Origin: Cantharellus purpuraceus
Lineage: Eukaryota > Basidiomycota > Agaricomycetes > Cantharellales > Hydnaceae
Direction: 5' to 3'
Assembly (NCBI GenBank): GCA_025174535.1
Contig: JALBUN010000011.1
Location: 682,001-746,000 of the forward strand
DNA: 64,000 bases
Shown: one piece after another, positions 8,418 through 36,715 of the stretch
Position numbering within the stretch: position 1 is the stretch's first letter
How the letters are laid out: every line of letters starts with the position of its first letter
Translations under genes and position numbers: made by a program
The notes under the pieces: model-generated
Told to the model about the DNA's origin: nothing
Databases searched by the model: none
Seen by the model: the letters and a program-made list of their open reading frames with translations, nothing else

Positions 8418-10123
8418 TGTAAGTACCCAAGTACTTACTTACTATAGTATATAATTATAATTAATGTATGCAGCATTCCTGTATGGGAACCACCTTTTCC
8501 CTATCAAATTCCATTTATGCAGCACCAATGTGCTATTCTTTGCTTTTCCATTCCTAAATATCAGCATATATTTGGTGCTTGTACCTGGAATGGACTTATT
8601 CAAATATTCTCTATTTTCCCATGTTTTTTTGGGAATATTCCATGCAGAACTCAGCCCAGAATCATTTATTTCTGCTGTGCTACAGTTGTGGACCCATAGG
8701 CACCCACAAACCTTCGCACAGCTGGCTATCCACCTTTGGACCAGGCATTCAGCCTGAATTCAAGCTCAGATGTCTCTGATCAATAAATATTCTCTAACTT
8801 GACAACCACAGCCTCTCAGGGCACTATTTTCCATGGAGATCATCACATGAGATGTGGCTATCCATGGCTGTCCAAACCAGTGCAGAAAACAGGGTGGACA
8901 CCTTTCTTTTTGCCTGATCAGTGCCTAGTTCAGGGATCAAATCAGCTGATGGGTGATCAAATCAGGTGATTGCCTTGGAATATTCTACCCCTTCCCATAA
9001 CATTCTAGCTGTTTCCTTCTATTATTAGATAGAACTTTCCAGAACCATTATTCAGCTCCTGATCCGTGTTAGTCCAGTGATCAGAACCTGTGATTGGCTT
9101 GGAATATTCTACCCCTTTCTTCCACCTTCCACAACCTTCCAGTAGCTTCCATCTATTAATAGTAGAATATTCCAGAAGCATTAGTCAGCCCCTGTAAATA
9201 CAATATATAAGGAGGCCATTCTGCCTCTGAAATAGAAACATATCCATCATATTCTACCCACCTTCTGCACACCAGTGTGACTAGAGTGACATACAGTGTC
9301 ATCCTCTATCTCAGTAACTGTTGGTTACCAGTTCAAGGATCTTTTACAGTTGTGTAACTGTACTTGATTGCACTCAAAGTAGTGATATTCCTGCTTTGGG
9401 CATGAGTGTAGTATCTACCTCACGTGACTACAAATCTACAGGGTGAGATTGTCTGTCAATAGTCCTGCCATTAGTGCTCTTGTTTAAGTTACTAGTGTGT
9501 ACTGCCTTTGCAGAGCATTAGAATCTTGAACTCGTGTGAAGCAGTTGCTAGACTACTTCACACATCGCTGTTACCCGCTTCTGAGTGCCACTGGTTGGAC
9601 GGTTGGATTCATCCACCTACTTCCTTTAGCCTCTAAGTGCATTCCCATCTTTTTGGAATATCTGGACCCCTAAGCGTCCGTGAACTCTAGACTCTGGAAG
9701 TCTTATTCATTTCTTGCTGCTAAGAAACGTATTACCTTTCTGCATATAGTCTGCATTGACCAATACAAAGGATTGTAACCAAAGTACAAACGTTAAATCG
9801 TTTCTGGAGTTGTGCTGCAGCAGGGTTTGATATTCTTCTCAGCTGTTCATTCACGGAATTGTGGTGATTTAGAGTTTGCCCTAACACCATAATTTTGCAG
9901 GTTCCAAAACAATTCCATTAAGGAATGCCATCTTCTTGGTAGATATATGCACCCATAGGGTGCATATGTATAGTGATTATGTAAGCCAGTGGACCCAAGT
10001 ACACATGTGTGTCCACATATAGTAGACAGACCTTAGTAAACAACCACACTGTACAGCACATTACACAACCAATATACTTGGTTGAGTTCTGTGTAACAGT
10101 GTGAACTAAGACACCAATTTACA
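8418..10123 (+). mobile_element. Family E LTR, interrupted by a D LTR
   Basis: The E LTR starts TGTAAGTACCC at 8418 and ends CACCAATTTACA at 10123; without the D insertion it is about 270 bp. Its hairpins are visible: GTAAGTAC/GTACTTAC at the start, the stem cut by the D insertion at 8475, and ATATGCACCC/GGGTGCATAT near 9945. Its left flank is the reverse F pol and its right flank the forward F protease. The flanking 5-mers TCTGT and CGGAC do not match, consistent with rearrangement across this LTR. Confidence 0.85.
8480..9911 (+). mobile_element. Solo LTR of family D, complete, target duplication ATTCC
   Basis: This 1432-bp unit runs TGTATGGGAACC...GGTTCCAAAACA and is flanked by ATTCC at 8475-8479 and 9912-9916; removing it restores the E LTR. 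A TATA box (TATATAA, about 9204-9210) in forward orientation sets the strand. It is the best copy in the window for defining the D LTR. No internal region is attached. Confidence 0.93.
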
Positions 10124-12456
10124 CGGACAAGGGTTGCATTGCCTTCGTGGAGCTACATCTCAATGCATCCACTCTTTCAGACCCTAACTCCTTGACACTC
10201 CAACTCACCTCTGATCTCATCCCCTTAACTCCAATCCCAACCCTAGTGGACTCCAGTTCCACTCATTGTTTCCTTGATTCTTTGTTTGTCTCCAGACATC
10301 ATCTCCAGACTGATGACATCACTCCAATTCCATTACAGCTCTTCTATGGATGTTCTAACTCCATTATTCAATTCACAATCAACTTGCCACTCCATTTTCC
10401 TATGGGAGAAACCCACTCTGTTACTTTTCATGTAACTCCATTGGATGTTAGTTGCTTGGCAGTTCTGGGACACAACTGGCTCACCCGCTACAATCTGTTG
10501 ATTGACTGGGTATTGGGCAGTATCTTGTTCTGAACTCCAATAGAGACTAAATCCTTGGTGCCATCCAAGTTGGTAGCATCAGCTCCACTCAACTCTGTAA
10601 CTCTGTCTCCGCTTGTTGCTCCAAAAATTGCTTTTGTCAATGTGGCAACCTTCACCCATGACTCTTTCCAAGCTGACATGCAAACATTCAAGTTGTTCAT
10701 CTCCTCAACAGTTCCAAAGAACTCCAAGGACCCTGTCTGACCAAACATCACAAATTCACAGACATCTTTAGCAAAACCTGTGCCGACACTCGATCTGCTC
10801 ACAAGCTGTACAATTTGAGGATCAAAATAGAAGATGGAACATCTCCTCCTTTTGGTCCAATCTACTCCTTGTCTCAGAGCAAACTCCAGGCTCATCAAGA
10901 ATTCATCAATGAGCATCTATCTTATGATTTCATCTGGCCAACCTTATCTCCAGATGGTGCTCCAGTCCTTTTCATTCAGAAAAAAAAAAGCTCCCTCTGA
11001 CTCTGCATTGATTTCAGGAGCCTCAATAAAATCACCAAAAAAGACCACTTCCTTGCATCTCTGATCTTCTTGACAGTCCTAGAAAGGCTCAATTCTTCAC
11101 CAAAATTGATCTCTGGCATGCTTATCATCTTGTCCGGATTCATGAAGGTGACAAATGGAAGACTGCATTTTGCACTCACTACGGCTCATTTGAGTGGTGC
11201 ATTATGCCCTTCAGACTTACCAATGCTCCAGCAGCATTCCAGTGTCTTATGAATGACATCTTCTCCAACCTCCTGGATATATGTGTCCTTGTGTACTTGG
11301 ACAATATCCTGATATACTCCAACAACTCTGAAGAACACAGCAACCATGTCCATGAAGTCCTTCTCTGACTCTGGGAGCACAAGCTGTATGCTCAAGCCAA
11401 TGAGTGTTCTTTCCCCAAGAGCACAGTCAAGTACCTCGGATGTATATTATCTCCAAATGGACTTACTATGGACTCCAGCAAAGTCCAGGTAATACAAGAT
11501 TGGCCAGAACCCCACAAAGTCAAAGATGTTCAATCCTTCTTAGGATTTGCCAATTTCTATAGGTGTTTTATATTCAACTACTCCAATCTCACAATTCCAC
11601 TGACTCACTTAAGATGCTTGTTCAAATTTTACACAACACACTTAGATTAAAACTTATTTTCATATTTCAACATGATTCTCAAATTTTACACAATATACTA
11701 GATTAAAACATATTTTGATATTTTGGCATAATTCTCGAAAATAATTCTTTTTTTCCCCATTTAGTGGTGGCAACTCTCTTGAGGGAACATCCAAATATCA
11801 TTGATTCTTTCTTATACAATACTTGTAACATAATTTGAACTATCTTTAATCCCCACCTGGTATTTATATATCTAAATACCTTATATAATACCAATTATAT
11901 TAATATAGACATTCCTATTATATCCATGTAAATAATTATGTTCATCTTGACCAAATATCTTATCTTTTAAAGTTTATTAAAATATATGTTTATATTTATG
12001 AAAATTTCACACAAATCTTTTAAGATATCCAAATTGTAACTCCCTGGCTTTATGTATCATTGAAATTCGATGTATATCTCATATACATCAGAATATTGTA
12101 TAATGACATGATTCCAAACAAGCATCTAACTTGTAAAGGAACTCCATGGGAGTTCTCAGACTCCTGTTGGACATCCTTCAAAATGTTAAAGAGAGCTTTC
12201 ACTACAGCTCCAGTCTTATCACAATGGAACCCTGGATCCCTGTAGAAACTGACACCTCCAACTATGCACTTGTGGCCATTTTATCAACTGTCTCTCCAAC
12301 AGAGGTCCATCCAATAGCTTTCCACTCCTGGACATTCACTCCAGCAGAGCTAAACTATGATGTCCATGATAAAGAACTACTTGCAATCTTTGAAGCTTTC
12401 AAGTCCTGGCAACATTAACTCGAAGGATCTCCAACTCCAGTTGATGTCATCACAGA
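10124..12456 (+). pseudogene. Family F pol, 5' half: protease, RT, start of RNase H (decayed)
   Basis: At about 10147-10533 is a retropepsin-like region: LVDSSSTHCFLD, where the usual D-S/T-G has lost its glycine, then AVLGHNWLTRYNLLIDW. RT follows in several frames: PPFGPIYSLSQSKL, PDGAPVLFIQKK, then a YLDN box in place of YLDD ([13 protein letters not shown], about 11290). Then come LGFANFYRCF and RNase H (VETDTSNYALVAIL) up to VDVITD, where an E LTR begins. The MITE at 11613 splits the stretch. The two halves of F pol abut the same ACAGA target, so they were once one element. Confidence 0.85.
11613..12126 (-). mobile_element. MITE copy 1, TSD TAA
   Basis: This AT-rich 514-bp unit starts GATGCTTGTTC and ends its inverted complement AAACAAGCATC; it is flanked by TAA at 11610-11612 and 12127-12129. 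Removing it with one TAA joins the F pol frame (T-H-L-T-C-K-G), which gives the exact empty site. It is related, in reverse, to the units at 19558 and 40477. It has no coding capacity. TIRs of about 11-16 bp plus a 3-bp duplication suggest a PIF/Harbinger-like MITE; that assignment is inference. Confidence 0.85.
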
Positions 12457-12628
12457 TGTAAATTGGTGTCTTAGTTCATACTGTTACACAGAACTCAACC
12501 AAGTATATTGGTTGTGCAATGTGCTGTACAGTGTGGTTGTTTACTAAGGTCTGTCTACTATATGTGGACACACATGTGTACTTGGGTCCACTGGCTTACA
12601 TAATCACTATACATATGCACCCTATGGG

Positions 12629-12782
12629 TGTTGGAATGCACTGAAGGTCCCTACAAAGTTTGGTATGGATTGGGTTATTGTGTGAGGAGATATGAGTGTT
12701 TTATGTGCTATAATTTCACTTTTTTGCTGAGTTTGTAGTTTAGCCTATCTAATAACATCCAACTTCGCTTTTGAGCTCTACA
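12629..12782 (+). repeat. copia 5' LTR
   Basis: This 154-bp unit runs TGTTGGAATGCAC...GAGCTCTACA and pairs with 17715-17868. Confidence 0.95.
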
Positions 12783-13550: not shown

Positions 13551-16500
13551 ATGTCTACAACCACCTCCAACGATCACACTCCCTCTCCTAAGCTCTCAGA
13601 CTCAAATTATCATGACTGGGCATTCAACATGACTGCTAGGTTATGTTCAAAGGGCTTATGGATGCTTGTCAATGGCAGAAAAAAGCGCCCCACTGAACCT
13701 GCAGACATGGAGAAATGGGGATTGGATCAGGAGGTAGCAGCTGGACTCATTGCATCAACCTTGGAACAAGGGCAGCGAGTTCATGTTCAGGGATTAGAGG
13801 ACAATCCGGTGAAAATGTGGGAAGCTCTGCACAGGGTACATGTCCAGAAGCAGGCAGGCACTCGTTTCAATGCCTATGATGCACTCTTCAATATACAGAA
13901 GGCTTCAGATGAGACACTCCAGTCTCTGGTTGGTCGTGTCAGCTCTGCCATGCAACTCTGCCAGAACCTTCATCCATCTGATGGCTCCTATACACTAGCC
14001 AGACAGGATGAGGAACTGGTGATCATGACACTGATTAGAGCCCTTCCTGAGGAGTTTGACAGCTTCACGTCTGCATTACTGCTTCAAAAGGACATTGACA
14101 AGGCCAAAGTTATTGAAGCCTTTATCACAGAGGAGAACAACCGTCTGCACCGTTCTGTTCAATCAGCCATGCTATCCAAACCACCTGCTTCAACACCCTC
14201 TTCTAAATGGTGTAACTTCTGTGAATTATCTACTCATAACACCAATGTTTGCTTTTCTCTAGCCAATGCCAAGAAGGCTAATCTGGAGCGCAGACAGACG
14301 GCTAAGCAGGAGAAGAAGCAGAGGCACAAGGCTAAACAGGCAGATGAATCTATCTCCTCTGTTGTTGAAGTTGCAGGATCGGCATTTACCACTGCAAGCA
14401 TTCCCTCTCTTCCTCATGCACACCTTGTCTCTGATACCAGTTCCCTTTGGTGCACTGATTCAGGAGCCTCATTACATATGACTCCACATTGCCATTGGTT
14501 TAAGGAGCTCAAACCTCATAGAGCTCCCATTGAATTGGCAGACAGTAGTGTTGTGTACTCTGAAGGGATTGGCATGGTGATGTTTTGCCCAAATGACCCA
14601 AACTTGAAACCCATACTGTTCAGCAATGTACTATACATTCCCAAACTTGCAAACAACCTCCTCTCACTCCTCTTCTTGACCATGCACCGTCAGATTCATG
14701 TGGAAATCATAGGAGCGGTTGTCAAATTCTATAAGTTGGGCAAACTGTTATGTACTGCAACAGTCAAGGGGAGACTGGCATACCTAGATGGCAACACACT
14801 TTCTCACACTGCACACATTGCTGCATCCAAGTCACTGGATCTCCAACTCTGGCACTGTCGCTTTGGGCACCTTGGGATTGATGCTGTCAAACAGCTGATC
14901 ATGCAGAATATGGTGGAGGGGATGGACATCACATCAGACAATCCATTCCCCAAAATCTGTGAAGCATGCATTCATGGTAAACAACACCATGATTCATTCC
15001 CCAAGAAAGCCTCCTTCAGGGCCACTGACATCCTGGAACTCATTCATTCTGATGTTCATGGCCCATTGAAGGTGCCCACTGGACAAGGGTTTAGGTACTG
15101 GATCACATTCATTGACAACAAATCTTGTTTTGTGAGCCTGTACTTGATCAAAACCAAGGACCAGGCATTGGATGCATTCAAGCAGTTCAAAGCACTGTGG
15201 AGAACCAGACTGGCAAATGGATCAAGACCCTGAGGGATGATAAAGGAGGAGAGTACTCATCGCACCAGTTCTCCTTCCTGACCATGTCCTCTGGGATCTT
15301 CAGGCAAAAGACCGCACCGGGCACACCACAGCAGAATGGAGTTGCAGAGTGCTACAACAGGACACTGGAAGAAGGCATTATCTCCATGTTACATGATGCT
15401 CAACTAGGTCCTTCTCTCTGGGGAGAAGCAGCAATGGCATTCACTCTTCTCCACAACTGCTCTCCCACCTCTGCGCTATCCCAAGGGACTCCATATGAAG
15501 CCTGGCATGGCCACAAGCCGTCTGTTGCGCATTTCAGGGTATTTGGTTCCACTGCATTTGTCCATGTCCCCAAATCTAAAAGGTGTCACCTTGAGTCACA
15601 CTCCACCAAGTGCATCATGATTGGATATGAGAATGGGACTAAGGCATGGCGACTATGGGATCCAGCTAGAAGGAGGGTATTGATCAGCAGGGATGTCATT
15701 TTTGATGAATCTGGCCACTCACACACATCCATCACACACAATCCACCACCGCAACTTGTGCAACTTCCTGATGATGTGCCCATTCGCCAGACATCTACTT
15801 TCCCTCCAGTTATCCCTCCAGCTACTCCCACCTCACCACCTTTGCCAGACGCTGCAACACCATCCCCTCTACCATCCCCATCTCCACCTCTACCATCTGA
15901 CCCTCCTCCAAGGCGTTCAGCACGCACACGCATGCCTCCCCAACCATGGTGGCTTATCCCAAATGCTGCCCAGTACAGGAATCCTCCACCTGAGTCACAG
16001 GGGAGAGATGATCTAACTGAGGGGGTGGATGATGTCCAGAATGAGGGGGTGGAACAGGCAGAATCCACCATACCATCTGTCCGACATCCACTTGAGGAAC
16101 TCGTCAAGCTCAGCAATGCTCCTGACCTCCCTGAACCATCCAGTTATCAGGAAGCCATGTCTAGAGTTGATCGACCATGGTGGAGAGAGTCCTGTGATGA
16201 AGAATATCAGTCCCTTATGGACAACAATGTTTGGACGGTGGTGGATCTCCCTCCCGGCAAGAAGGCTGTGGGCTCCAAATGGGTATTCAAAATCAAGAAG
16301 CACCCTGATGGATCCATTGAGCACTTCAAATCTAGAGTGGTTGCAAAAGGATACACACAGAAGGCAGGGATTGACTTCACGGAAACATTTGCCCCTGTTG
16401 TGAGATTCAACACACTCAGAGTGCTCCTTGCCATCACCGCCATTGAGGATCTGGAATTGGACCAAGTCGACTTCAAATCTGCCTATTTGAACGGTGAGAT

Positions 16501-17707
16501 TGAAGAAGAGGTCTACATGGAGCTTCCAGATGGCTACAAGCAGGGAGAGAAAGTTGGGAGACTGAACAAGGCGATCTATAGAACCAGACAAGGAGGAAAC
16601 AGGTGGCACGCTAAACTGGACCAAGCTTTCCTTCAGATGGGATTCACCAGGTCCAAAGTGGACAGCTGCCTTTACCTGTACATCCAAGGATCCATCAAAG
16701 TCTACATCCCTGTCTATGTTGATAATCAGCTTATGGCATGCAACAGTCGGAGTCATCTTGACAAAGTTAAGCTTGAGCTGTTGCAACATTTCAAAATGAA
16801 GGACTTGGGACCTGTCAGATACATTGTTGGTCTGGAAATCCACAGAGACAGGAGAAAGAGGACGCTGCACATTAACCAGCACAAGTATGCATTGGATGTT
16901 TTGAAGCAGTTCAACATGGAGAACTGCAAGCCAGTGTCTACCCCTCTTGATCCAGGATGCCATCTGTCCAAGAAACTTAGTCCAGAGTCAAAGGAGGACA
17001 TTGAGGCCATGAGAAGCGTTCCCTATCTTGCTGCTGTTGGAAGCCTGAACTATCTTGCGATTGGAACCAGACCAGACATTGCACATGCAGTTGGTGAACT
17101 TGGCCAATTCAACTCAAATCCTGGTTTGGGCCATTGGAAGGCGGTACAGCACATGCTCAAATACATCAAGGGCACTGCTGAACTGGGATTGACATATGGA
17201 CCTGCAGACTCTGGTTCCCAAGTGATGCTCCAGGCCTACTGTGATGCCAACTATGCAGGAGATGAGGATAGGAGATGGTCAACGACTGGATATGCATTCT
17301 TCATTGGTGGAGTAGCAGTGAGCTGGAGCAGCAAATGACAACCTACAGTGGCAACATCCTCATCTGATGCTGAATACATGTCAGCCAACTTTGGAGGACG
17401 TGAAGCAATGTGGTTGAAACAGCTGCTGAATGAACTTGGTTACCATCTTCCTCCAATCACACTTTTCTGTGACAGTCAACCTGCCATTGCGGTATCCAAG
17501 AACCCTGAACACCATACAAGGATGAAGCACATTGATGTGATGTATCACTGGTTAAGGGAAAAGGTAGAAAGGAGATCATTAAAACTTCAGTTTGTGCCCA
17601 CAGATGAGATGGTAGCCGATGTGCTAACCAAGGCTCTGGTGCATGCCAAACATGAGAAATTCAGAGATGGATTGGGTATTTGCAGGATTGAAGGGACGCT
17701 TCATTGA
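13551..17707 (+). pseudogene. copia Gag-Pol polyprotein (one frameshift, one stop)
   Basis: A single gag-pol frame starts at ATG 13551. Order: UBN2-type gag (about residues 1-200), CCHC knuckle (CNFCELSTHNTNVC), protease (LWCTDSGASLHMT), pre-integrase (LWHCRFGHLG) with the HHCC finger (CEACIHGKQHH), and integrase core from ILELIHSDVHG. Near 15198 the frame shifts by one base (FKQFKA to VENQTGKW), most simply a single-base loss. Pol continues with PGTPQQNGVAE, RT (KWVFKIKKHPDG, then YVDN where YVDD is expected, about 16720) and RNase H. A TGA at 17336 replaces an expected Arg codon (CGA); the RNase H end follows to 17707 (SSDAEYMSANFGG, TKALVHAKHEKF). The damage is light and partly of CpG-deamination type. 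Confidence 0.93.
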
Positions 17708-17868: not shown

Positions 17869-18666
17869 ATGGGTGCATATATCTACCAAGAAGATGGCAT
17901 TACTTAATGGAATGCTGCATACATTAATTATAATCATATACTATAGTAAGTAAGTACCTTGGGTACTTACACTCTCCCCTTTTTGAGCGAGGCATGATCT
18001 CATTCAGTAAATCATACAGCTCCTTATGAAGCTGCTCTGACAAGTCAGTGTCCATATGATTGTCTTGATCATATGGCTCTGGAGGGGGATGGCTCTCAAT
18101 TGTCCCCAACATCATTGCAGTATCCTCATCCACTTGAATGGATGAGGAGGATGCAATTGCTATTGCAGCATCCTGATCAAGCTCATGATTAAGTTGGTTG
18201 TGACCTAAACACTCAGCAAGAGAGCATTTAGCAGCTTTATGAGCTGCTTGGCATGAAACGTCTGAACGACATGACTTTCTATAATCACATTGTGCACCAC
18301 TAGCAGGTTCATTTGAGCCTGCTGTGTGAATTGTTTGACACCCTTGAACTTGGTGTCATTGTCAATGGGCATGCCTATCCTAGGCATATACCCATAGTTA
18401 AGCTCAAATGGAGTAAACCCTGTTGTTGAGGTTATGTTGGAGTTTAGCATGAACTCCACCATTGGACTTATGTGCCCAATCTTTCTGATCACTTCATACA
18501 ACTTTATGAAGTATTTGGCCAATGGAATGACACTTGTTCCATCACTCCATCCATTTGTGGATGAAACACTGTGGACATGAGGAGTTTCACTCCTATTATC
18601 CACTGTAGTTCATGCCAAAAGATAGATGTGAATTTTGAATCTTGATCAGACACAATCAAGTCTGGT

Positions 18667-19190
18667 TGTTATGACTATATTCATTAATGCCCAGATCCCC
18701 ATCTGATCCACTCAGATCCCCATGCGTATGAAATCTATACTCCATTTGGAAACCATCAGGTCTCCATTTACCTGTCTGATTGTAACTGCCGATTCCACCC
18801 ATCCGTCTCCGGTTCCGATTGATGCATCAGCATCACCATAGGAACCTGGACATCCATCCCCATCAGACTCAGACATACTCGTGTAAGGCTGTCGGCCTCA
18901 GAGACCCATCCCCGGAGTAATTATTAGATTTCAAATATGTATTTAAGTTGCCCAACTGGGGACTTCATTCCCCAGTTTGAATATTGAATCACGCCTAGTT
19001 CCTAAGTCCGATCCTAACTCTCTAAGTTGTACTCCATCTCCAAAATCTTGGACACTGGTATTAGTGAGGGTGCAGCACATAAGCTGAAGCCAAGTCCGTT
19101 CTGACCCCCATGACGTACCTGACTCCTTCTCCAACTCCAACCAAACCTCCAACCCAATCTCTGACCACCAATCGGACCTAGTGCATAACA
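18667..19190 (+). mobile_element. Solo LTR of family A, target duplication CTGGT
   Basis: This complete 524-bp unit runs TGTTATGACTATATTC...CTAGTGCATAACA and is flanked by CTGGT at 18662-18666 and 19191-19195. A TATA-like TATTTAAG lies near 18940. It is inserted in the integrase of the reverse E element and defines the A LTR ends. Confidence 0.95.
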
Positions 19191-19557
19191 CTGGTACACC
19201 ATGAAGGCATACAACTTCTCTAAGGAATAGCCATGCTACTCCTTTTGCTGTTACACGCATATCTGTAAGTAGTATATGTACCTGCGACGTGAAGTGATCT
19301 ATGACTACCAGTATAGTCATTCAATTTTGGTAATGGACCCATAAAGTCCATACCTATCGATTGCCAGGGCTGTTCCAGTACTGGCAAGCTATGAAGAAGC
19401 CCTATGGGTTTCTTCATACTGTCTTTATTCATTGGCACTTCATGCATGAAGTGCAGAATGATTCAACATTGGTGGCCATGCCTGGCCACCAGTACAACCA
19501 TTGGATGTAATTTGTGGTCTTTAGTTGACCAAAATGGCCAACTACTTGGTGCACATG

Positions 19558-20162
19558 GACGCTTGTTCGGAAGGATGCTGTTATACAATATTCTGATGTA
19601 TACAAGATGTACATCAGAATTTTAATAATGATCATAAAAATAGGGAGTTACAATCTGGATATCTTTAAAGATTTCGGATATCTGAGTTTTTTTGGATATC
19701 TTAAATTTTTATAAATATAAATATATATTTCATATTTTAATAAACTTTAAAAGATAAGATGTTTGTTATGGATGAACATAATTGTTTATATGAATATAAC
19801 AGTAATGTATATATTAATATTATTGGTATAATAGAGAATATTTAGATATACAAATACCAGGTGAGGATTCAAGGTACATTAGATTATTTGACCAGTATAG
19901 TACAAGAAAGAATGAGTGAAAGAAATTCAGTGTAGCAGGAGTAGAATATTCCCTTGAAGCAGTTGCCACCAGTAAATGAAAAAAAAAGAATTATTTTTGA
20001 GAATCATGTCAAAATATCAAAATATGTTTTAAATCTAAGTAAATTATATAAATTTGAGAATCATGTATGAAATATCAAAATATGTTTTAATAGAAGTATA
20101 TTATATAAAATTTGAGGAAATGGGTTGTATATACATATTTGATGTATTTCTGAACAAGCGTC
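19558..20162 (+). mobile_element. MITE copy 2, TSD ATG
   Basis: This 605-bp AT-rich unit starts GACGCTTGTTCGG and ends CTGAACAAGCGTC, flanked by ATG at 19555-19557 and 20163-20165. Its interior is homologous to the copy at 40477-41041. No ORF is supported. The target differs from the TAA of the other two copies. Confidence 0.82.
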
Positions 20163-22392
20163 ATGGTTGATTATTATCTCAACCAGCCTCCTCCCCTTCA
20201 GAAACACTGAGTGGGGTATACAGATGACATTGCATCTGTATATATTTTTGGTCCATATTAGACCCTCATGCACGCTGAATTGTGCATGCTGTCAGGGTTC
20301 ATGTTGGAATTGGCCCTGGAGCTTTCATTACGGGTTTCCAACCTTGACACACTCACTTGTTGTGAGTGTTTGTTGGGGGCTGTATACACATGTCCTTGGG
20401 GTATAGGTTGACTCCCTGTATTCATCATACCAGAAGTTCTATTGACTACTGGTCTATAGGTTGAGGAGGATGTGTTAGTTGCATTCTCCATGCATCACAT
20501 ACCATGGTGGTATTGCATTGCTTCCTCTATCATTCAAGCAGTTTTGTACAACTGCTCAATACTGCTAAACTTGGCATTGAAGCCCTTCTTGAGGACTTCT
20601 TGTCTCAGAGGTTCATGCATTGCAGTTACAAACCTCTTCCTGTACGTGTATGCATCCAGCAGCATTATCATGCGACCCATATACTTATCTAGATCATTCA
20701 TTAATTTGTGAATGGTCCTTTGACCCTGTGTTACAGAGTCAAATTTATTTGACACATGATGATGCATCAGGGTGTGTAGGAATCTATGCTGCAATCCTTG
20801 GATTGCAGTTTCCAGGGTCCAGTCTTGGACTGCCCTGTCATAGTGTTCTACATTTCTGTAGAACCATTCCTGGGCCTCGCCTTAAGGCAAGTGCCTAAGT
20901 ACAATAGTTGAAACTTTGTACTTGATGGCCCTAGGAGATTATTCATCTTCAGCCATTGTAGCATACCTGCTACAAAGATCTCAAACTCTTCAAGATCTGC
21001 ACCTCCTGCGTATTGCTCAGGGTGCAATACTTTGATGCCCACCTTGGCAAGTACAGACTTCTCTGGGTCTGTATCTCTATTATTGACTATGGCTACTTGC
21101 ACCATGCAAGTAATGCTATTGATAGAATCAATTGTATCCAATTGATCTGAAATGCCTTGACCTTCTAGGGTCAGTGGTGCTGATTGTTCCCTGTTATGGG
21201 GAACATCTTCTTGAGGTACCCATTGGGTATTTCATTGCTCATGGTGGGTGTCTCCTGAAAGGCCTGCTGCTCATACACACTGATAACTGTTCAGTGCATG
21301 TTGCAACTGTCAATTTAAATCAACAGCCACATTGAGCTCTTGCTGGGGCCACTGCTCTCTAAACAGCTGGCCGAGTTCCTGCTCTGCATGTTTAGCCTTC
21401 CATTTGAGAGCTAATCTATGTTTATGAGAAGCCTCAACTTCCCATTGTTTCCATAGCTTGATCAAGAGATTGAGGTCCTTTGCCATAGATTGAGGAGTTT
21501 CCCCCTCAATCTGGATCATTAATCCTTGCCTTACAGAGATTACTGGGTCTCTAATTCCCTCCATTGGGGGAATTTCATTTCCTCTGTCCAACTGATCATT
21601 TGGTTGGACCCTCTCACCCTGGGGAGGTCCAGACTCTCCAGATTCAGATTCTTGTTGAGAATCTGATCTTCAGTGATGTGACTTGCATCACTCAGAGTTC
21701 TCTTGGAGTGATTTTAACATTGTTCCTAGCTCTGCAATTTCCTGCCTCATAGTAGTGGCAGCATGTCCTGCTTCAGCAGCCATCTTGGCTGCCTGAGCAC
21801 TAGCTTCGCTAATGCTCATGTTGATTACACATGAGTTGTTTGGTCAATCTCACGATTGACCTGTGGGTTTCACACCACTCCGTGCTGCATGATTCCTAGT
21901 AGAAGTATTGCTACTTCTACTTGTGCTCGTATATTGAGCACATTCCTTTCCTTTAGGAGCATTGGAGACAGTGGATGACTGTCTCTTCCTTTCTTCTCTA
22001 ATCAGAGAACCACTCAATGAGGGGTTCCTGTTTGACAGACGATCTATTGTGTAATTGTCTGTGTGGTCTCATGACTGCAATGACTCTCTCCTAGAGTCCA
22101 GCTCCCCTTCATGGGAGTTTCTGCTGCTGGCTACATGCTGCCATTCATCATTTATGATGTCCTAGGCACTGCCAGAACAACTCACTCAACTGCGAGTCAT
22201 CATTATGATGACTCCTTTCTTTCTTCTATCTTTGTAGACTAACTAAGTTAGTCTACTAGTTGCTCACTTATATGAGTGACTGGGGGTTGGTATATATCTG
22301 TACACCAGCAACAGCCAGTTTTCTAGTATTGACTAGAAAACTTCAATAATGAGGAAGAACCAATTGATTCTTCCTTTGGAAGTTCAAAAAAG

Positions 22393-22745
22393 TGTAAATT
22401 GGTGTCTTAGTTCACACTGTTACACAGAACTCAACCAAGTATATTGGTTGTGCAATGTGCTGTACTGTAAGTACCCAAGGTACTTACTTACTATAGTATG
22501 TAGCTAGATAGTTATAATTAGTGTATGCAGCATTCCATTAAGGAATGCTGTCTTCTTGATAGATATATGCACCCATAGGGTGCATATGTATAGTTATTAT
22601 GTAAGCCAGTGGACCCAAGTACACGTGTGGGTCCACATATAGTAGACAGAAAACTTAGTAACTACCACACTGTACAGCACATCACCCAACCAGTACACTT
22701 GATTGAGTTCTGTGCAATGGTGTGAACTAAGACACCCAATTAACA
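22393..22745. repeat. Head-to-head family E LTRs (reverse fragment 22393-22465, complete forward 22466-22745)
   Basis: A reverse E LTR starts TGTAAATTGGTG at 22393 and is cut after 73 bp, where a complete forward E LTR (280 bp, TGTAAGTACCC...CCAATTAACA) begins at 22466. The reverse piece is the 5' LTR remnant of the left E element; the forward one is the 5' LTR of the right E element. No target duplication is visible at the junction, so recombination is more likely than simple insertion. Confidence 0.82.
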
Positions 22746-25700
22746 CTTTTTTGAACTTCCAAAGGAAGAATCAATTGATTCTTCCTCATTATTGAAGTTT
22801 TCTAGTCAATACTAGAAAACTGGCTGTTGCTGGTGTACAGATATATACCAACCCCCCCAGTCACTCATATAAGTGAGCAACTAGTAGACTAACTTAATTA
22901 GCCTACAAAGATAAAAGAAAGAAAGGAGTCATCATAATGATGACTTGCAGTAGAGTGAGTCATGCTGGCAGCGCACAGGACATTATAAATGATGGATGGC
23001 AGCACATAGCCAGCAGCAGAAGCTCCCAGGAAGAGGAACTAGACCCTAGAGAAGTCGCAGGGACTTCCCATAAGGAAGACTCTAGAAGAGAGTCACCATG
23101 ATTGTGAGACCACACAGATGATTGTACAATAGATTGTCTGTCAAACAAGAACCCTTCATTGAGTGGTGATTAGAGAAGAAAGGAGGAGACAGTCATCCAC
23201 TGTCTCCAACACTCCTAAAGGAAAGGAATGTGCTCAATATACGAGCACAAGTAGAAGTAGCAATACTTCTACTAGGGAATCGCACAGCACAGAGTGGCAT
23301 GAAACCCACAGGTCAATCACAAGATTGACTGAACAACTCATGCATAATCAACATGAGATGAAGAGCATTAGCGAAGCTAGTGCTCAGGCAGCTAAGATGG
23401 CTGCTGAAGCAGGGCATGCTGCCACTACTATGGGGCAGGAAATTGCAGAGCTAGGAACAATGTTAAAATAGCTCCAAGAGAACTCTGAGCAATGCAAGTC
23501 ACATTGCCAAAGATCAGATTCTTGAGAGGAATCTGAATCTGGAGAGTCTGGACCTCCCCAGGGTGAGAGGGTCCAACCAAATGATCAGTTGGACAGAGGA
23601 AATGAAATTCCCCCAATGGAGGGAATTAGAGACCCAGTAATCTCTGTAAGGCAAGGATTAATGATCCAGATTGAGGGGGAAACTCCTCAATCTATGGCAA
23701 AGGACCTCAATCTCTTGATCAAGCTATGGAAACAATGGGAAGTTGAGGCTTCTCATAAACATAGATTAGCTCTCAAATGGAAGGCTAAACATGCAGAGCA
23801 GGAACTCGGCCAGCTGTTTAGAGAGCAGTGGCCCCAGCAAGAGCTCAATGTGGCTGTTGATTTAAATTGACAGTTGTAACATGCACTGAACAGTTATCAG
23901 TGTGTATGAGCAGCAGGCCTTTCAGGAGACACCCACCATGAGCAATGAAATACCCAATGGGTACCTCAAGAAGATGTTCCCCATAACAGGGAACAATCAG
24001 CACCACTGACCCTAGAAGGTCAAGGCATTTCAGATCAATTGGATACAATTGATTCTATCAATAGCATTACTTGCATGGTGCAAGTAGCCATAGTCAATAA
24101 TAGAGATACAGACCCAGAGAAGTCTGTACTTGCCAAGGTGGGCATCAAAGTATTGCACCCTGAGCAATACGCAGGAGGTGCAGATCTTGAAGAGTTTGAG
24201 ATCTTTGTAGCAGGTATGCTACAATGGCTGAAGATGAATAATCTCCTAGGGCCATCAAGTACAAAGTTTCAACTATTGTACTTAGGCACTTGCCTTAAGG
24301 CGAGGCCCAGGAATGGTTCTACAGAAATGTAGAACACTATGACAGGGCAGTCCAAGACTGGACCCTGGAAACTGCAATCCAAGGATTGCAGCATAGATTC
24401 CTACACACCCTGATGCATCATCATGTGTCAAATAAATTTGACTCTGTAACACAGGGTCAAAGGACCATTCACAAATTAATGAATGATCTAGATAAGTATA
24501 TGGGTCGCATGATAATGCTGCTGGATGCATACACGTACAGGAAGAGGTTTGTAACTGCAATGCATGAACCTCTGAGACAAGAAGTCCTCAAGAAGGGCTT
24601 CAATGCCAAGTTTAGCAGTATTGAGCAGTTGTACAAAACTGCTTGAATGATAGAGGAAGCAATGGAGAATGTGACTAACACATCCTCCTCAACCCATAGA
24701 CCAGTAGTCAATAGAACTACTGGTATGATGAATACAGGGAGTCAACCCATGTATATGGCTCCCAACACACACTTACAACAAGTGAGTGCACCAAGGCCAG
24801 AACCCCATAGTGGAGGCTCCAGGTTCAATTCCAACAATTACTCCTTTAAGGGTAATTATCAATCGAAGCCACCAGCACATGTGAGTGGTGATTGATTGAA
24901 CAACATTACTAGTAATATTGTGTGCTACAAATGTGGCCAAACAGGTCACATGTGACCCAGCTACCCCAAACTAAAGGGAAATGTAAGGTTGGCTGCAGTC
25001 CAAAAGGATGTGTCCTCACACATAGTGGAGGACAATGTAGATGGGTTCTCCCTGATAGAGGGAGAACATGAAGAAGTGATGGATGATCCAAGGACCATCT
25101 AGAGGAAAAAATGCCAGCTATAGAAGTGGCTGATGAATGGGATGAGATCACCCTATATGAATGGGACAACCAAGATGACACCCCTATTGACAGACAATCT
25201 CACCCTGTAGATTCATAGTCATGCAAGGTAGATACTACACTCATGCCCAAAGCAGGACAATCACTACTTTGAGTGCAATCAAATACAGTTATACAACTGT
25301 AAGTGACCCTTGAACTGGACAATCAACAGTTACTGAGATATAGAGGATGACACTGTATGTCACTCTAGTCACACTGATGTGCAAATTATGGGGTAGAAAT
25401 GGTTATTTATTCAGAGGCAAAATGGCCTCCTTATATACTGTATCTACAGGAGCTGACTAATCCTTCTACCTATTAATAGTTATGAGTCATGGCAGGAGTC
25501 ATAGCCTGAGTCACTATTACTCAAATCACTCAGGAAATACCCTGTTTCCCAGGCTGATAAGCACAGCTATGCATAGGCACAGCTTCAATTGAAAGCTCCA
25601 CCAAAAATGGAGTCAGGAGGAGCTGTGGTTGCCAAGATATTGAGGATTTACTGGCAGTGGTGATCAGATTGGGTTGGAGATTGAAATGAGTCATGTGATT

Positions 25701-26142
25701 GAAAATGAGTTGGTAGATCAGGTGACTCTGCTGACTTTGAAGCTGCTGACATCTGCAAAGTTTTGTGGGTCCATGTGTGTCCAAAACTTTGCCCAGCAGG
25801 ACAATAAATTTGTGAACCCATTTCTGCATGGAAAATTCCTGAAAAATATGAAGAAATAGAGAATATTTGAATGACTCTAAATCAAGAGAAAGCAGCATGT
25901 CTATGCTGATATTTTAAGGCCATAAAGTGAAAATATACAATTTTGGGACTATAAACAAGATTTTTACAGGGAAAACCAGTTCCCATACAGAGGGGATAAT
26001 GATATCCCCTGAATTCACACATGCAACAGGTATGAAAACCTTCATGCTAGAGCAACCCATCACACTGAAATTAGTGTGCATTGGGAGCAGGAGTACCATA
26101 AATTATGGTACTCACACTACCATAAAGTTTGGTAGTTGAGAC
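22746..26142 (+). pseudogene. Family E internal region, forward copy: gag, zinc knuckle, protease start
   Basis: Read forward: a leader with palindromes (22764-22820); a gag N-terminal region (23163-23471); a charged stretch (23589-23870); retrotrans_gag (24039-24332, continuing after a frameshift at 24386-24646); a Ser/Asn-rich stretch; and a CCHC-like knuckle (CYKCGQTGHM, then a stop in place of a sense codon, and Tyr where the last Cys is expected) near 24930. After the truncated D LTR, the protease region resumes at 25990-26140 (MKTFMLEQPITLKL, then CIGSRSTINYGT). It ends at the junction with A pol near 26140. Its gag part is nearly identical to the reverse copy at 20258-21591, making a large inverted repeat. 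Confidence 0.85.
25184..25989 (-). mobile_element. Truncated family D LTR in reverse
   Basis: Homology to the reverse D LTR at 3461-4871 begins near 25184 (CTATTGACAGACAATC) and runs to the terminal TTCCCATACA at 25989; about 600 bp of the LTR is missing on the left. It is inserted in family E between gag and protease. It contains a 122-codon open frame on the minus strand (25530-25898) shared in part with the D LTR at 3461, of unknown meaning. Confidence 0.85.
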
Positions 26143-35887: not shown

Positions 35888-36447
35888 GTTTCACGCTGCT
35901 CTGTGCTGCACAATTCCCTAGTAGAAGTATTGCAGTATTGCTACTTCTACTTGTGCTCATATATTGAGCATGTTCCTGTCCTTTAGGAATGTTGGAGACA
36001 GTGGATGACTGTCTCCTCCTTTCTTCTCTAATCAAAGAACCACTCAATGAAGGGTTCTTGTTTGACAGGTGATCTATTGTGCAATCATCTGTGTGGTCTC
36101 GTGATCATGGCGACTCTCTTCTAGAGTCTTCCTTACAAGAAGTCCCTGCAACTTCTCTAGGGTCTAGCTCCCCTTCCTGAGAGCTTCTGCTGCTGGCTAC
36201 ATGCCACCATTTATCATTTATGATGTCCTGTGTGCTGCCAGCATGACTCACTCTACTGTGAGTCATCATTATGATGACTCCTTTCTTTCTTCTATCTTTG
36301 TAGGCGAACTAAGTTAGTCAACTAGTTGCTCACTTATATAAGCGACTGGGGGGGTCTGTACACCAGCAACAGCTGGTTTTCTAGTATTGACTAGAAAACT
36401 TCAATAATGAGGAAGAATCAATTGATTCTTCCTTAAGTTCAAAAAAG
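35888..36447 (-). repeat. Family E leader/gag start, third fragment
   Basis: It matches the beginning of the E internal region (22746-23300 and, in the same orientation, 21860-22392), including the paired repeats around ATGATGACTC and CTAGTATTGACTAGAAAAC. The LTR at 36448 is its 5' LTR; the rest of the element is lost beyond the A LTR. Confidence 0.85.
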
Positions 36448-36715
36448 TGTTAATGGGTGTCTTAGTTCAAACCATTGCACAGAACTCAACCTAGTGTATT
36501 GGTTGGGCGATGTGTTGTACAGTCTGGTAGTTACTAAGTTCTATCTACTATATGTGGACCCACATGTGTACTGGGTCCACTGGCTTACATAATAACTATA
36601 CATATGCACCCTATGGGTGCATATATCTACCAAGAGGACAGCATTCCTTAATGGAATGCTGCATATATTAATTATACTTATATGTTATAGTAAGTAAGTA
36701 CCCTGGGTACTTACA
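36448..36715 (-). mobile_element. Family E LTR in reverse (5' LTR of the fragment at 35888)
   Basis: It begins TGTTAATGGGTG and ends GGTACTTACA. Its initial hairpin has extended to a 10-bp stem (GTAAGTACCC/GGGTACTTAC). Its right flank, CATCT, is inside the integrase C-terminal region of A copy 3. Confidence 0.88.

What the first reader, a model, noticed from the sequence alone, without database searches (positions are those of the whole stretch)
17874..26142. Family E retroelement is packed with short hairpins along its whole length, LTR and coding DNA alike
Seen directly: perfect or near-perfect inverted repeats recur every few tens of bases in the E LTR, leader, gag, protease start and integrase. 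LTR at 22466-22745: stems at 22467-22487 (9 bp), 22528-22550 (9), 22565-22587 (10) and 22609-22636 (8). Internal: 22764-22785 (22-nt palindrome), 22797-22820 (9), 23250-23273 (10), 24316-24335 (7), 24372-24391 (9), 24701-24723 (8), 25045-25067 (8), 26091-26113 (23-nt palindrome); in integrase 18124-18147 (9) and 19435-19454 (20-nt palindrome). With equal base use, a given 6-bp stem with one of ten loop sizes is expected about once per 400 nt, and an 8-bp stem about once per 6500 nt, so this is far above chance. The A, B and C elements around it do not show it to my eye. Possible causes: selection on RNA or cDNA structure, or a mutational process such as template switching that keeps creating and correcting palindromes. 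I know of no described Ty3 family with this property.
Basis: partly seen in the sequence, partly recalled or inferred. Interest (0 to 1): 0.86.

Follow-up and report, generated by a model that had tools for sequence, protein, structure and literature searches.

The report
Retrotransposon packed with perfect short hairpins
One family of probably fungal jumping genes carries a small, mostly perfectly matched DNA hairpin of about 22 letters every few dozen letters along most of its length, genes included, and some copies have the hairpin loop flipped round, which hints that the element's copying process itself may write and repair these hairpins.

Summary
All 14 listed hairpins are present. Family-E segments of the window hold 54 perfect hairpins (stem >=8, loop <=12) in 7,168 nt; 56,399 nt of other window sequence hold 20; shuffled E gives 1.7. 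E is a Ty3-like LTR retrotransposon of a 40-Mb, probably fungal genome, with hundreds of copies. Hairpins occur in LTR, leader, gag, protease/RT, integrase and a third ORF; in an open gag ORF they exceed synonymous shuffles (9 vs 0.6). They span about 22 nt, are mostly perfect, and show no excess beyond 12-nt loops. Folding excess over shuffles is 30-38%, comparable to or above five RNA phages (23-32%). Loops are reverse-complemented between copies in 5 of 66 hairpins; one LTR loop reads ATA in 64 and TAT in 23 of 87 exact-flank places. Compensatory changes do not exceed shuffles; slight sense-strand signals remain. Best explanation: arm-copying template switches during the element's own replication, filtered by protein constraint (0.42). 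Main rival: selection on folded RNA (0.36). No DNA from other species could be tested. New variant of a known kind.

The parts
22466..22745 (+). E LTR (280 bp, TGTAAG...TTAACA), four perfect hairpins of stem >=8
22746..23305 (+). E leader after the LTR, five hairpins of stem >=8
23306..24700 (+). E gag region (weakly Ty3_capsid-like, frame broken in this copy), eight hairpins of stem >=8
24701..25183 (+). E region after gag, two hairpins of stem >=8
25991..26142 (+). E protease fragment after a nested insertion (25981-26163 matches the L034 protease at 80% over 61 aa), two hairpins
20163..22465 (-). second E copy (LTR fragment, leader, gag), inverted to the first, 17 hairpins of stem >=8
19191..19557 (-). 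E integrase zinc-finger region (PF17921 on 19432-19557), three hairpins
18252..18666 (-). E integrase downstream region (weak rve match E=0.099), one hairpin of stem >=8
17869..18251 (-). E 3' tail (end of the third ORF) and truncated 3' LTR, three hairpins
35888..36715 (-). third E copy (LTR and leader, about 88% identical), nine hairpins
22467..22487 (.). LTR hairpin 9+3 nt; loop CAA occurs reverse-complemented (TTG) in 4 of 103 exact-flank places genome-wide
22528..22550 (.). LTR hairpin 9+5 nt
22565..22587 (.). LTR hairpin 10+3 nt; loop ATA (64) or reverse complement TAT (23) in 87 of 87 exact-flank places
22609..22636 (.). LTR hairpin 9+10 nt
22763..22786 (.). leader palindrome, stem 12 loop 0
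22796..22821 (.). leader hairpin 11+4 nt
23250..23273 (.). leader hairpin 10+4 nt
23705..23724 (.). gag-region hairpin (arms imperfect in this copy) whose loop TCTT is the reverse complement of AAGA in other copies
24316..24335 (.). gag hairpin 8+4 nt
24372..24391 (.). gag hairpin 9+2 nt; inverted loop TT in 5 of 53 exact-flank places
24700..24724 (.). hairpin 9+7 nt after gag
25045..25067 (.). hairpin 9+5 nt
26091..26113 (.). hairpin 11+1 nt in the protease region
19435..19454 (.). 20-nt perfect palindrome inside the integrase zinc-finger ORF (19432-19557)
18123..18148 (.). 3' tail hairpin 10+6 nt

Best explanation
Family E is a Ty3-like LTR retrotransposon whose replication cycle keeps copying one arm of a near-palindrome onto the other. 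A polymerase, most likely the element's reverse transcriptase, briefly switches template within about 22 nt and returns. This turns imperfect palindromes into perfect ones, repairs arms after mutation and now and then flips the loop. A perfect hairpin is then a near-absorbing state, so hairpins accumulate wherever coding allows: densest in LTR and leader, via synonymous positions in genes. Shown: hairpin density, predominance of perfect stems, size limit, absence in the other families tested, loop inversions between copies. Inferred: that arm copying made the hairpins, that it happens during reverse transcription, and that a perfect hairpin is protected by repair.
For: Stems >=7 bp: E has 93 perfect, 4 with a transversion mismatch, 18 with a bulge (shuffles 7, 5.5, 13.7); five RNA phages have 55, 26 and 45 (11, 11, 28); Fisher p=3e-9. 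At >=8 bp: E 55, 5, 15 (1.8, 1.9, 6.4), phages 24, 17, 33; p=7e-7. Exact loop inversions in 5 of 66 aligned hairpins; no match to the reversed or complemented control. Genome-wide, 87 of 87 LTR places with exact flanks carry loop ATA (64) or TAT (23); 5 of 53 gag places carry TT; 4 of 103 LTR places carry TTG at another hairpin, three of them with ATA and one with TAT at the first, so inversion recurred or recombined. Size ruler: spans 22.1 +/- 3.2 nt, 57% within 20-23 against 20% shuffled and 25% in phages; excess only for loops <=12. Rough strand symmetry: one-mismatch stems GU 14, AC 16; folding z -4.0 to -5.1 sense, -4.0 to -4.9 antisense. Other families tested lack it. Template switching that makes hairpins and inverts loops is described in PMC8794818 (passages).
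Against: Compensatory pairs do not exceed shuffles: 25 vs 23.1 overall, 6 vs 3.8 with CpG sites masked. Sense-strand signals: folding excess is 2-6 points higher on the sense strand in 6 of 6 E sets, and in the LTR alone one-sided changes are GU 21, AC 6 (CpG-masked 16 and 4), though not elsewhere. Loops are A-rich on the sense strand (A 0.41, T 0.21; linkers 0.32, 0.24), so loop inversion cannot be fast enough to symmetrise them. Gag residues in stems are no more diverged from relatives than others (difference 0.007), which argues against wholesale arm replacement and needs small, mostly synonymous corrections. The symmetry test discriminates poorly, since RNA phages are also near-symmetric. 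Stems with one GU or AC mismatch are in excess (11 and 9; shuffles 1.2 and 1.5); I read them as decayed, which is inference. Loop inversion could follow from hairpins made for another reason. Singleton variants are as dense in stems as outside (86 at 719 sites, 226 at 1811, CpG-masked), so no correction is seen in dead chromosomal copies.
Confidence: 0.42

Rival explanations
1. Selection for a genome-scale folded RNA (or cDNA), as in RNA phages and persistent RNA viruses: the hairpins compact the RNA, guide packaging by Gag or shield it from RNA silencing, and were assembled by point mutations, mostly synonymous.
For: Folding excess 30-38% over shuffles per 250-nt window (sense), z -4 to -5, five controls -3.5 to 6.2%, and 2-6 points above antisense in 6 of 6 E sets; five RNA phages 23-32%; vertebrate RNA virus genomes up to 23.4% in PMC7642675, passages. 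Hairpins in gag use synonymous freedom without extra amino-acid divergence. Loops A-rich on the sense strand. LTR one-sided changes GU 21, AC 6. CpG-masked shared variants somewhat fewer in stems, 20 at 719 sites vs 88 at 1811, with ascertainment bias.
Against: No excess of GU over AC pairs over the whole element (CpG-masked shared 7:7:11; one-mismatch stems 14:16), although only the sense RNA is the genome of an LTR element; few transversion-mismatched or bulged stems, unlike phages; loops 6-8 nt more often than 3-5 (39:26 against 7:22 in phages, p=0.0017); no excess beyond loop 12; no compensatory excess.
Confidence: 0.36
2. DNA-level or unit-level function: each ~22-nt palindrome is a shape-specific site (hairpin or cruciform) for an element protein such as Gag or the third-ORF protein, many copies being needed per genome.
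For: Near-constant span of about 22 nt with stem and loop lengths anticorrelated (rho -0.29, p=0.004; phages -0.18, p=0.17); rough strand symmetry; a third ORF of unknown family probably belongs to the element.
Against: Arm sequences differ and no loop trinucleotide is in more than 19 of 93 loops; I know of nothing that binds arbitrary palindromes over a whole retroelement (recall).
Confidence: 0.15
3. Chance, composition or annotation artefact.
For: None found; non-E sequence is itself about twice its shuffles, far below E.
Against: Dinucleotide and synonymous shuffles, direct-repeat control, nested insertions and other families.
Confidence: 0.01

Closest known systems
Template-switch mutations creating and maintaining RNA hairpins (PMC8794818; passages read)
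   Same: Perfect inverted arms, loop inversion as footprint, short local scale
   Different: There described for rRNA and microRNA genes and attributed to DNA replication; here one retroelement family is covered end to end, and arm-compensating clusters were not demonstrated
Genome-scale ordered RNA structure of RNA viruses (PMC7642675; passages read)
   Same: Many consecutive stem-loops through coding sequence, folding far above shuffles
   Different: Reported genome means about 7-23%, with higher local peaks; E 30-38% (different window and shuffle); E hairpins are about 22 nt and mostly perfect
Single-stranded RNA phage genomes (MS2, Qbeta, PP7, GA, AP205; computed here)
   Same: Comparable folding excess, near-symmetric on both strands
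   Different: 1.27 perfect stems >=8 per kb versus 6.8 in E; phage helices contain many more mismatches and bulges
Loop inversions at small hairpins in chloroplast DNA (listing and recall)
   Same: Short inversions flanked by inverted repeats
   Different: Known there as scattered single loci (recall)
Yeast Ty3 and Ty1 genomic RNA (PMC11381356; passages read)
   Same: LTR retrotransposon RNA with dispersed structure
   Different: Stable regions up to 30% of those RNAs; no palindrome packing in the passages seen

Membership tests
Ty3-type LTR retrotransposon | LTRs with TG...CA ends and short target-site duplication | tested here: met
   28 LTRs printed, all TG...CA; 5-bp duplications at 4 of 28, two of which are one duplicated insertion; 22 of the other 24 have E internal sequence on one side, 2 do not
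Ty3-type LTR retrotransposon | Polypurine tract before the 3' LTR | tested here: met
   AAAAAGGGGAGGG-type run directly before the LTR in 13 of 28 LTRs, those with the 3' tail
Ty3-type LTR retrotransposon | tRNA primer-binding site after the 5' LTR | tested here: inconclusive
   Sequence CTTTTTTGAACTTCC..., no TGG start seen by eye; no tRNA comparison made
Ty3-type LTR retrotransposon | Ty3 capsid, aspartic protease, RT, H2C2 integrase | tested here: met
   Sub-threshold Pfam matches Ty3_capsid E=0.0029, Asp_protease_2 1e-4, RVT_1 3.3e-5; many gag relatives carry PF19259; Integrase_H2C2 6.9e-14, above cut-off
Ty3-type LTR retrotransposon | RT upstream of integrase | tested here: inconclusive
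   gag-PR-RT order in L034 and gag-integrase order in the window copy; no held copy was found with both RT and integrase
Genome-scale ordered RNA structure | Mean folding excess over shuffles well above unstructured RNA | tested here: met
   30-38% sense
Genome-scale ordered RNA structure | Structure acts in the sense RNA (wobble tolerance, sense bias) | tested here: inconclusive
   Sense folding surplus 2-6 points in 6 of 6 sets and GU 21 vs AC 6 in the LTR, but GU about equal to AC overall, as also in RNA phages
Template-switch hairpins | Loop inversion between related copies | tested here: met
   5 of 66 hairpins, controls 0
Template-switch hairpins | Multi-base compensatory changes templated by the other arm | tested here: not met
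   Compensatory pairs not above shuffles, 25 vs 23.1 and 6 vs 3.8

The most novel reading that the evidence does not exclude
A retrotransposon lineage whose own reverse transcription writes palindromes into its genome: a self-palindromising element, where a ~22-nt template-switch window of its polymerase drives every near-palindrome to perfection as a ratchet, so that genome structure evolves by a copying bias and not by selection on folding.
Probability: 0.38. Interest if true: 0.92.

Novelty: new variant of a known kind. Interest (0 to 1): 0.78.

Why it matters
If the hairpins are made by copying, this is a natural case where a mutational bias shapes a whole coding genome, and hundreds of copies make the question whether template switching or selection makes RNA hairpins directly countable. 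If they are selected, it would be, as far as my searches went, the first LTR retrotransposon with RNA-phage-like genome-wide structure, with implications for packaging and for escape from silencing.

Tried and rejected
Sense-RNA wobble test (GU vs AC): about equal in E as a whole, with the LTR as an exception (21:6) and the opposite lean at CpG-type shared sites (all shared changes 27:51). I first took equality as evidence for copying, then found RNA phages are also equal, so it is only weak evidence. Covariation: not above shuffles. Conservation of the same hairpins in metagenomic gag relatives (120 of 168 hits used): peptides of relatives could encode the full stems in 13.3% of cases against 12.6% with arms from different relatives, mean of 11 hairpins, so the positions are not kept at 48-70% identity; whether those relatives have other hairpins is unknown. 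Viral contigs with the gag query: 2 stretches matched a pattern, none a relative. Rfam and ARAGORN on the window: nothing. A third-ORF search found only three uncharacterised proteins. I considered that the third-ORF region was a separate non-autonomous element; of the 40 scored places 8 have gag 3-12 kb upstream on the same strand and 1 has gag close downstream (by-hand comparison; two of the 8, on C17 and C49, look like one duplicated copy), so part of the same element is likelier, not proven. The 30 RT control loci are mostly one family: 29 of 30 fall in one cluster linked at >=75% identity.


Full report
What is there. The window is C11:682001-746000 of a 40.15-Mb genome in 50 contigs. Family E occurs in the window as two inverted adjacent copies (17869-22465 minus; 22466-26142 plus), each broken by nested insertions, as a third fragment at 35888-36715, and as LTR fragments near 9912-10124 and 12457-12630. 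Genome-wide the LTR gave 438 first-look candidates and the gag region 232 (only 40 of each were scored); one LTR hairpin pattern alone has 220 places. LTRs are TG...CA, 5-bp duplications flank 4 of the 28 LTRs printed, and a polypurine run precedes the 3' LTR in 13. Coding matches are Ty3_capsid, aspartic protease, RT and integrase zinc finger; the first three are weak and below Pfam's cut-offs. A third ORF with no Pfam domain over its cut-off and no PDB match better than E=0.45 precedes the 3' tail; three uncharacterised metagenomic proteins match it at 43-48%. The RT fragment is 29-34% identical to the RTs of the 26 of 30 control loci that it matched, so E is a separate lineage.

Is the observation more than chance? 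Yes. 14 of 14 stated hairpins exist. Perfect stems >=8 with loop <=12: 54 in 7,168 nt of E segments versus 20 in 56,399 nt elsewhere in the window; dinucleotide shuffles give 1.7 and 10.6. Segment by segment E runs at 2.4-14.3/kb, while the nested insertions have 0-1 each; the AT-rich one has 9 stems >=6 against 3.4 shuffled. Thirty other RT loci have 31 in 104 kb, five shuffles 8-24, though 29 of these 30 are one family cluster. Direct repeats show no comparable excess. Protease/RT (6.8/kb), pre-ORF3 (7.8/kb) and ORF3-tail (6.1/kb) regions are packed too. In an open 303-aa gag ORF (L032) there are 9 stems >=8, against 0.18 in dinucleotide and 0.56 in synonymous-codon shuffles, maximum 4 of 200. 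Folding of 250-nt windows exceeds shuffles by 30-38% (sense) and 28-33% (antisense), z -4.0 to -5.1, against -3.5 to +6.2% in five controls; the sense surplus is 2-6 points in 6 of 6 E sets.

Shape. Loops show an excess only up to 12 nt, mode 6-8; stems reach at most 12 bp in the non-redundant set. Total span is 22.1 +/- 3.2 nt, 57% within 20-23 nt (shuffled 20%, phages 25%), and stem and loop length are anticorrelated, rho -0.29. Stems >=7 bp: 93 perfect, 11 with one GU and 9 with one AC mismatch (shuffled 1.2, 1.5), 4 with a transversion mismatch (5.5), 18 with a bulge (13.7). Five RNA phages, where folding is known to be selected (recalled), have 55 perfect, 11, 10, 26 and 45 (shuffled 11, 1.9, 2.3, 11, 28). 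Perfect against transversion-plus-bulge: Fisher p=3e-9, and 7e-7 at stems >=8, where E still has a small excess of imperfect stems. Of 162 one-sided changes between copies, 68 sit at CpG-type sites, and 46 of the 64 shared ones. CpG observed/expected is 0.12 in E, 0.51 in the other window segments and 0.79 at 44-64 kb, and stops inside gag copies are mostly TGA. So many broken stems look like decayed perfect ones (inference).

Between copies. Nine piecewise alignments (4-36 copies each) contain 66 hairpins; in 5 the loop of some copies is the exact reverse complement of the others (LTR ATA/TAT and CAA/TTG; gag AAGA/TCTT and AA/TT; ORF3 AAA/TTT), with 0 hits for the reversed or complemented control. 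Genome-wide, an LTR hairpin with exact flanks reads ATA in 64 and TAT in 23 of 87 places and nothing else; allowing two mismatches gives 177 and 43. The gag AA loop is TT in 5 of 53, the other LTR loop TTG in 4 of 103; what the remaining 48 and 99 read was not counted. Three of those four TTG copies carry ATA at the first hairpin and one TAT. Against a strong selection or correction signal: compensatory pairs do not exceed shuffles (25 vs 23.1; 6 vs 3.8 CpG-masked), and CpG-masked shared variants are only mildly rarer in stems (20 at 719 sites vs 88 at 1811, six alignments; ascertainment contributes to this). Singletons are about equal inside and outside stems (86 at 719 sites, 226 at 1811), as expected if dead copies mutate freely. 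One-sided changes: GU 21, AC 6 in the LTR, GU 8, AC 16 in the leader; over all nine alignments shared GU 27, AC 51, CpG-masked 7 and 11. Two copies (L019, L029) are one duplicated insertion and were both in the LTR alignments; L029 was dropped.

Protein side. E gag is 48-70% identical to the listed metagenomic relatives (168 hits, 120 listed and used). Their peptides are no more able to encode the same hairpins than arm-shuffled controls (13.3% vs 12.6%), so these hairpin positions are not shared at that distance. E residues in stems are not unusually diverged. Hairpins in gag therefore were assembled through small, largely synonymous changes, whether selected or copied (inference).

Mechanism. 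I judge arm-copying by short template switches during the element's own replication as the likeliest maker (0.42): it predicts Watson-Crick arms, strand symmetry, a short fixed span, loop inversions and restriction to one lineage. The mechanism class is described for rRNA and microRNA genes in PMC8794818 (passages). Selection on a folded RNA is the main rival (0.36): E's folding excess is comparable to or above RNA phages (23-32%) and the virus values in PMC7642675 (7-23.4%, passages; other window and shuffle), E loops are A-rich on the sense strand, and the sense strand folds slightly better. The wobble test cannot separate the two cleanly, because RNA phages are also symmetric. Both may act together.

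Literature. By title and abstract start, the listings held no LTR retrotransposon with hairpin packing; several were capped (12 of 277 papers, 12 of 72). The yeast Ty3 RNA paper PMC11381356 reports stable regions on up to 30% of Ty1/Ty3 RNA (passages). PMC13155455 (passages) names TIR transposons and MITEs as IR-rich and its main text does not contain the word retrotransposon. The library lacks most subscription journals, so absence there is weak evidence.

Noticed in passing
window 20516-21817 and 23363-24664: The two inverted E copies are 95-100% identical in gag but about 84% in the leader, as if a conversion tract joined them.
   Followed up: no
L037:7765-9401 minus, L040:6360-7995 minus: E probably carries a third ORF (no Pfam domain over its cut-off) upstream of the 3' tail; three metagenomic relatives at 43-48%.
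   Followed up: partly
window 17869-26142, E segments: CpG observed/expected is 0.12 and stops in gag copies are mostly TGA, a strong CpG-to-TpG decay of this family.
   Followed up: partly
window 22746-22765: The stretch after the 5' LTR (CTTTTTTGAACTTCC...) does not look like a usual tRNA primer-binding site; priming may be unusual.
   Followed up: no
window 19559-20161: AT-rich 603-bp insertion with ACGCTT/AAGCGT ends and 5-bp duplication CATGG, containing one hairpin that reaches 14 bp in other copies; looks like a small DNA transposon.
   Followed up: partly
window 18667-19190: 524-bp solo-LTR-like insertion (TGTTAT...ATAACA, duplication CTGGT) with five copies in the window.
   Followed up: partly
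L019 and L029: The same solo LTR with identical flanks on two contigs (C50 and C29): a segmental or assembly duplication.
   Followed up: no
window 13551-17338: A copia element with two long overlapping ORFs (560 and 737 aa), with longer open frames than the E copies here.
   Followed up: no
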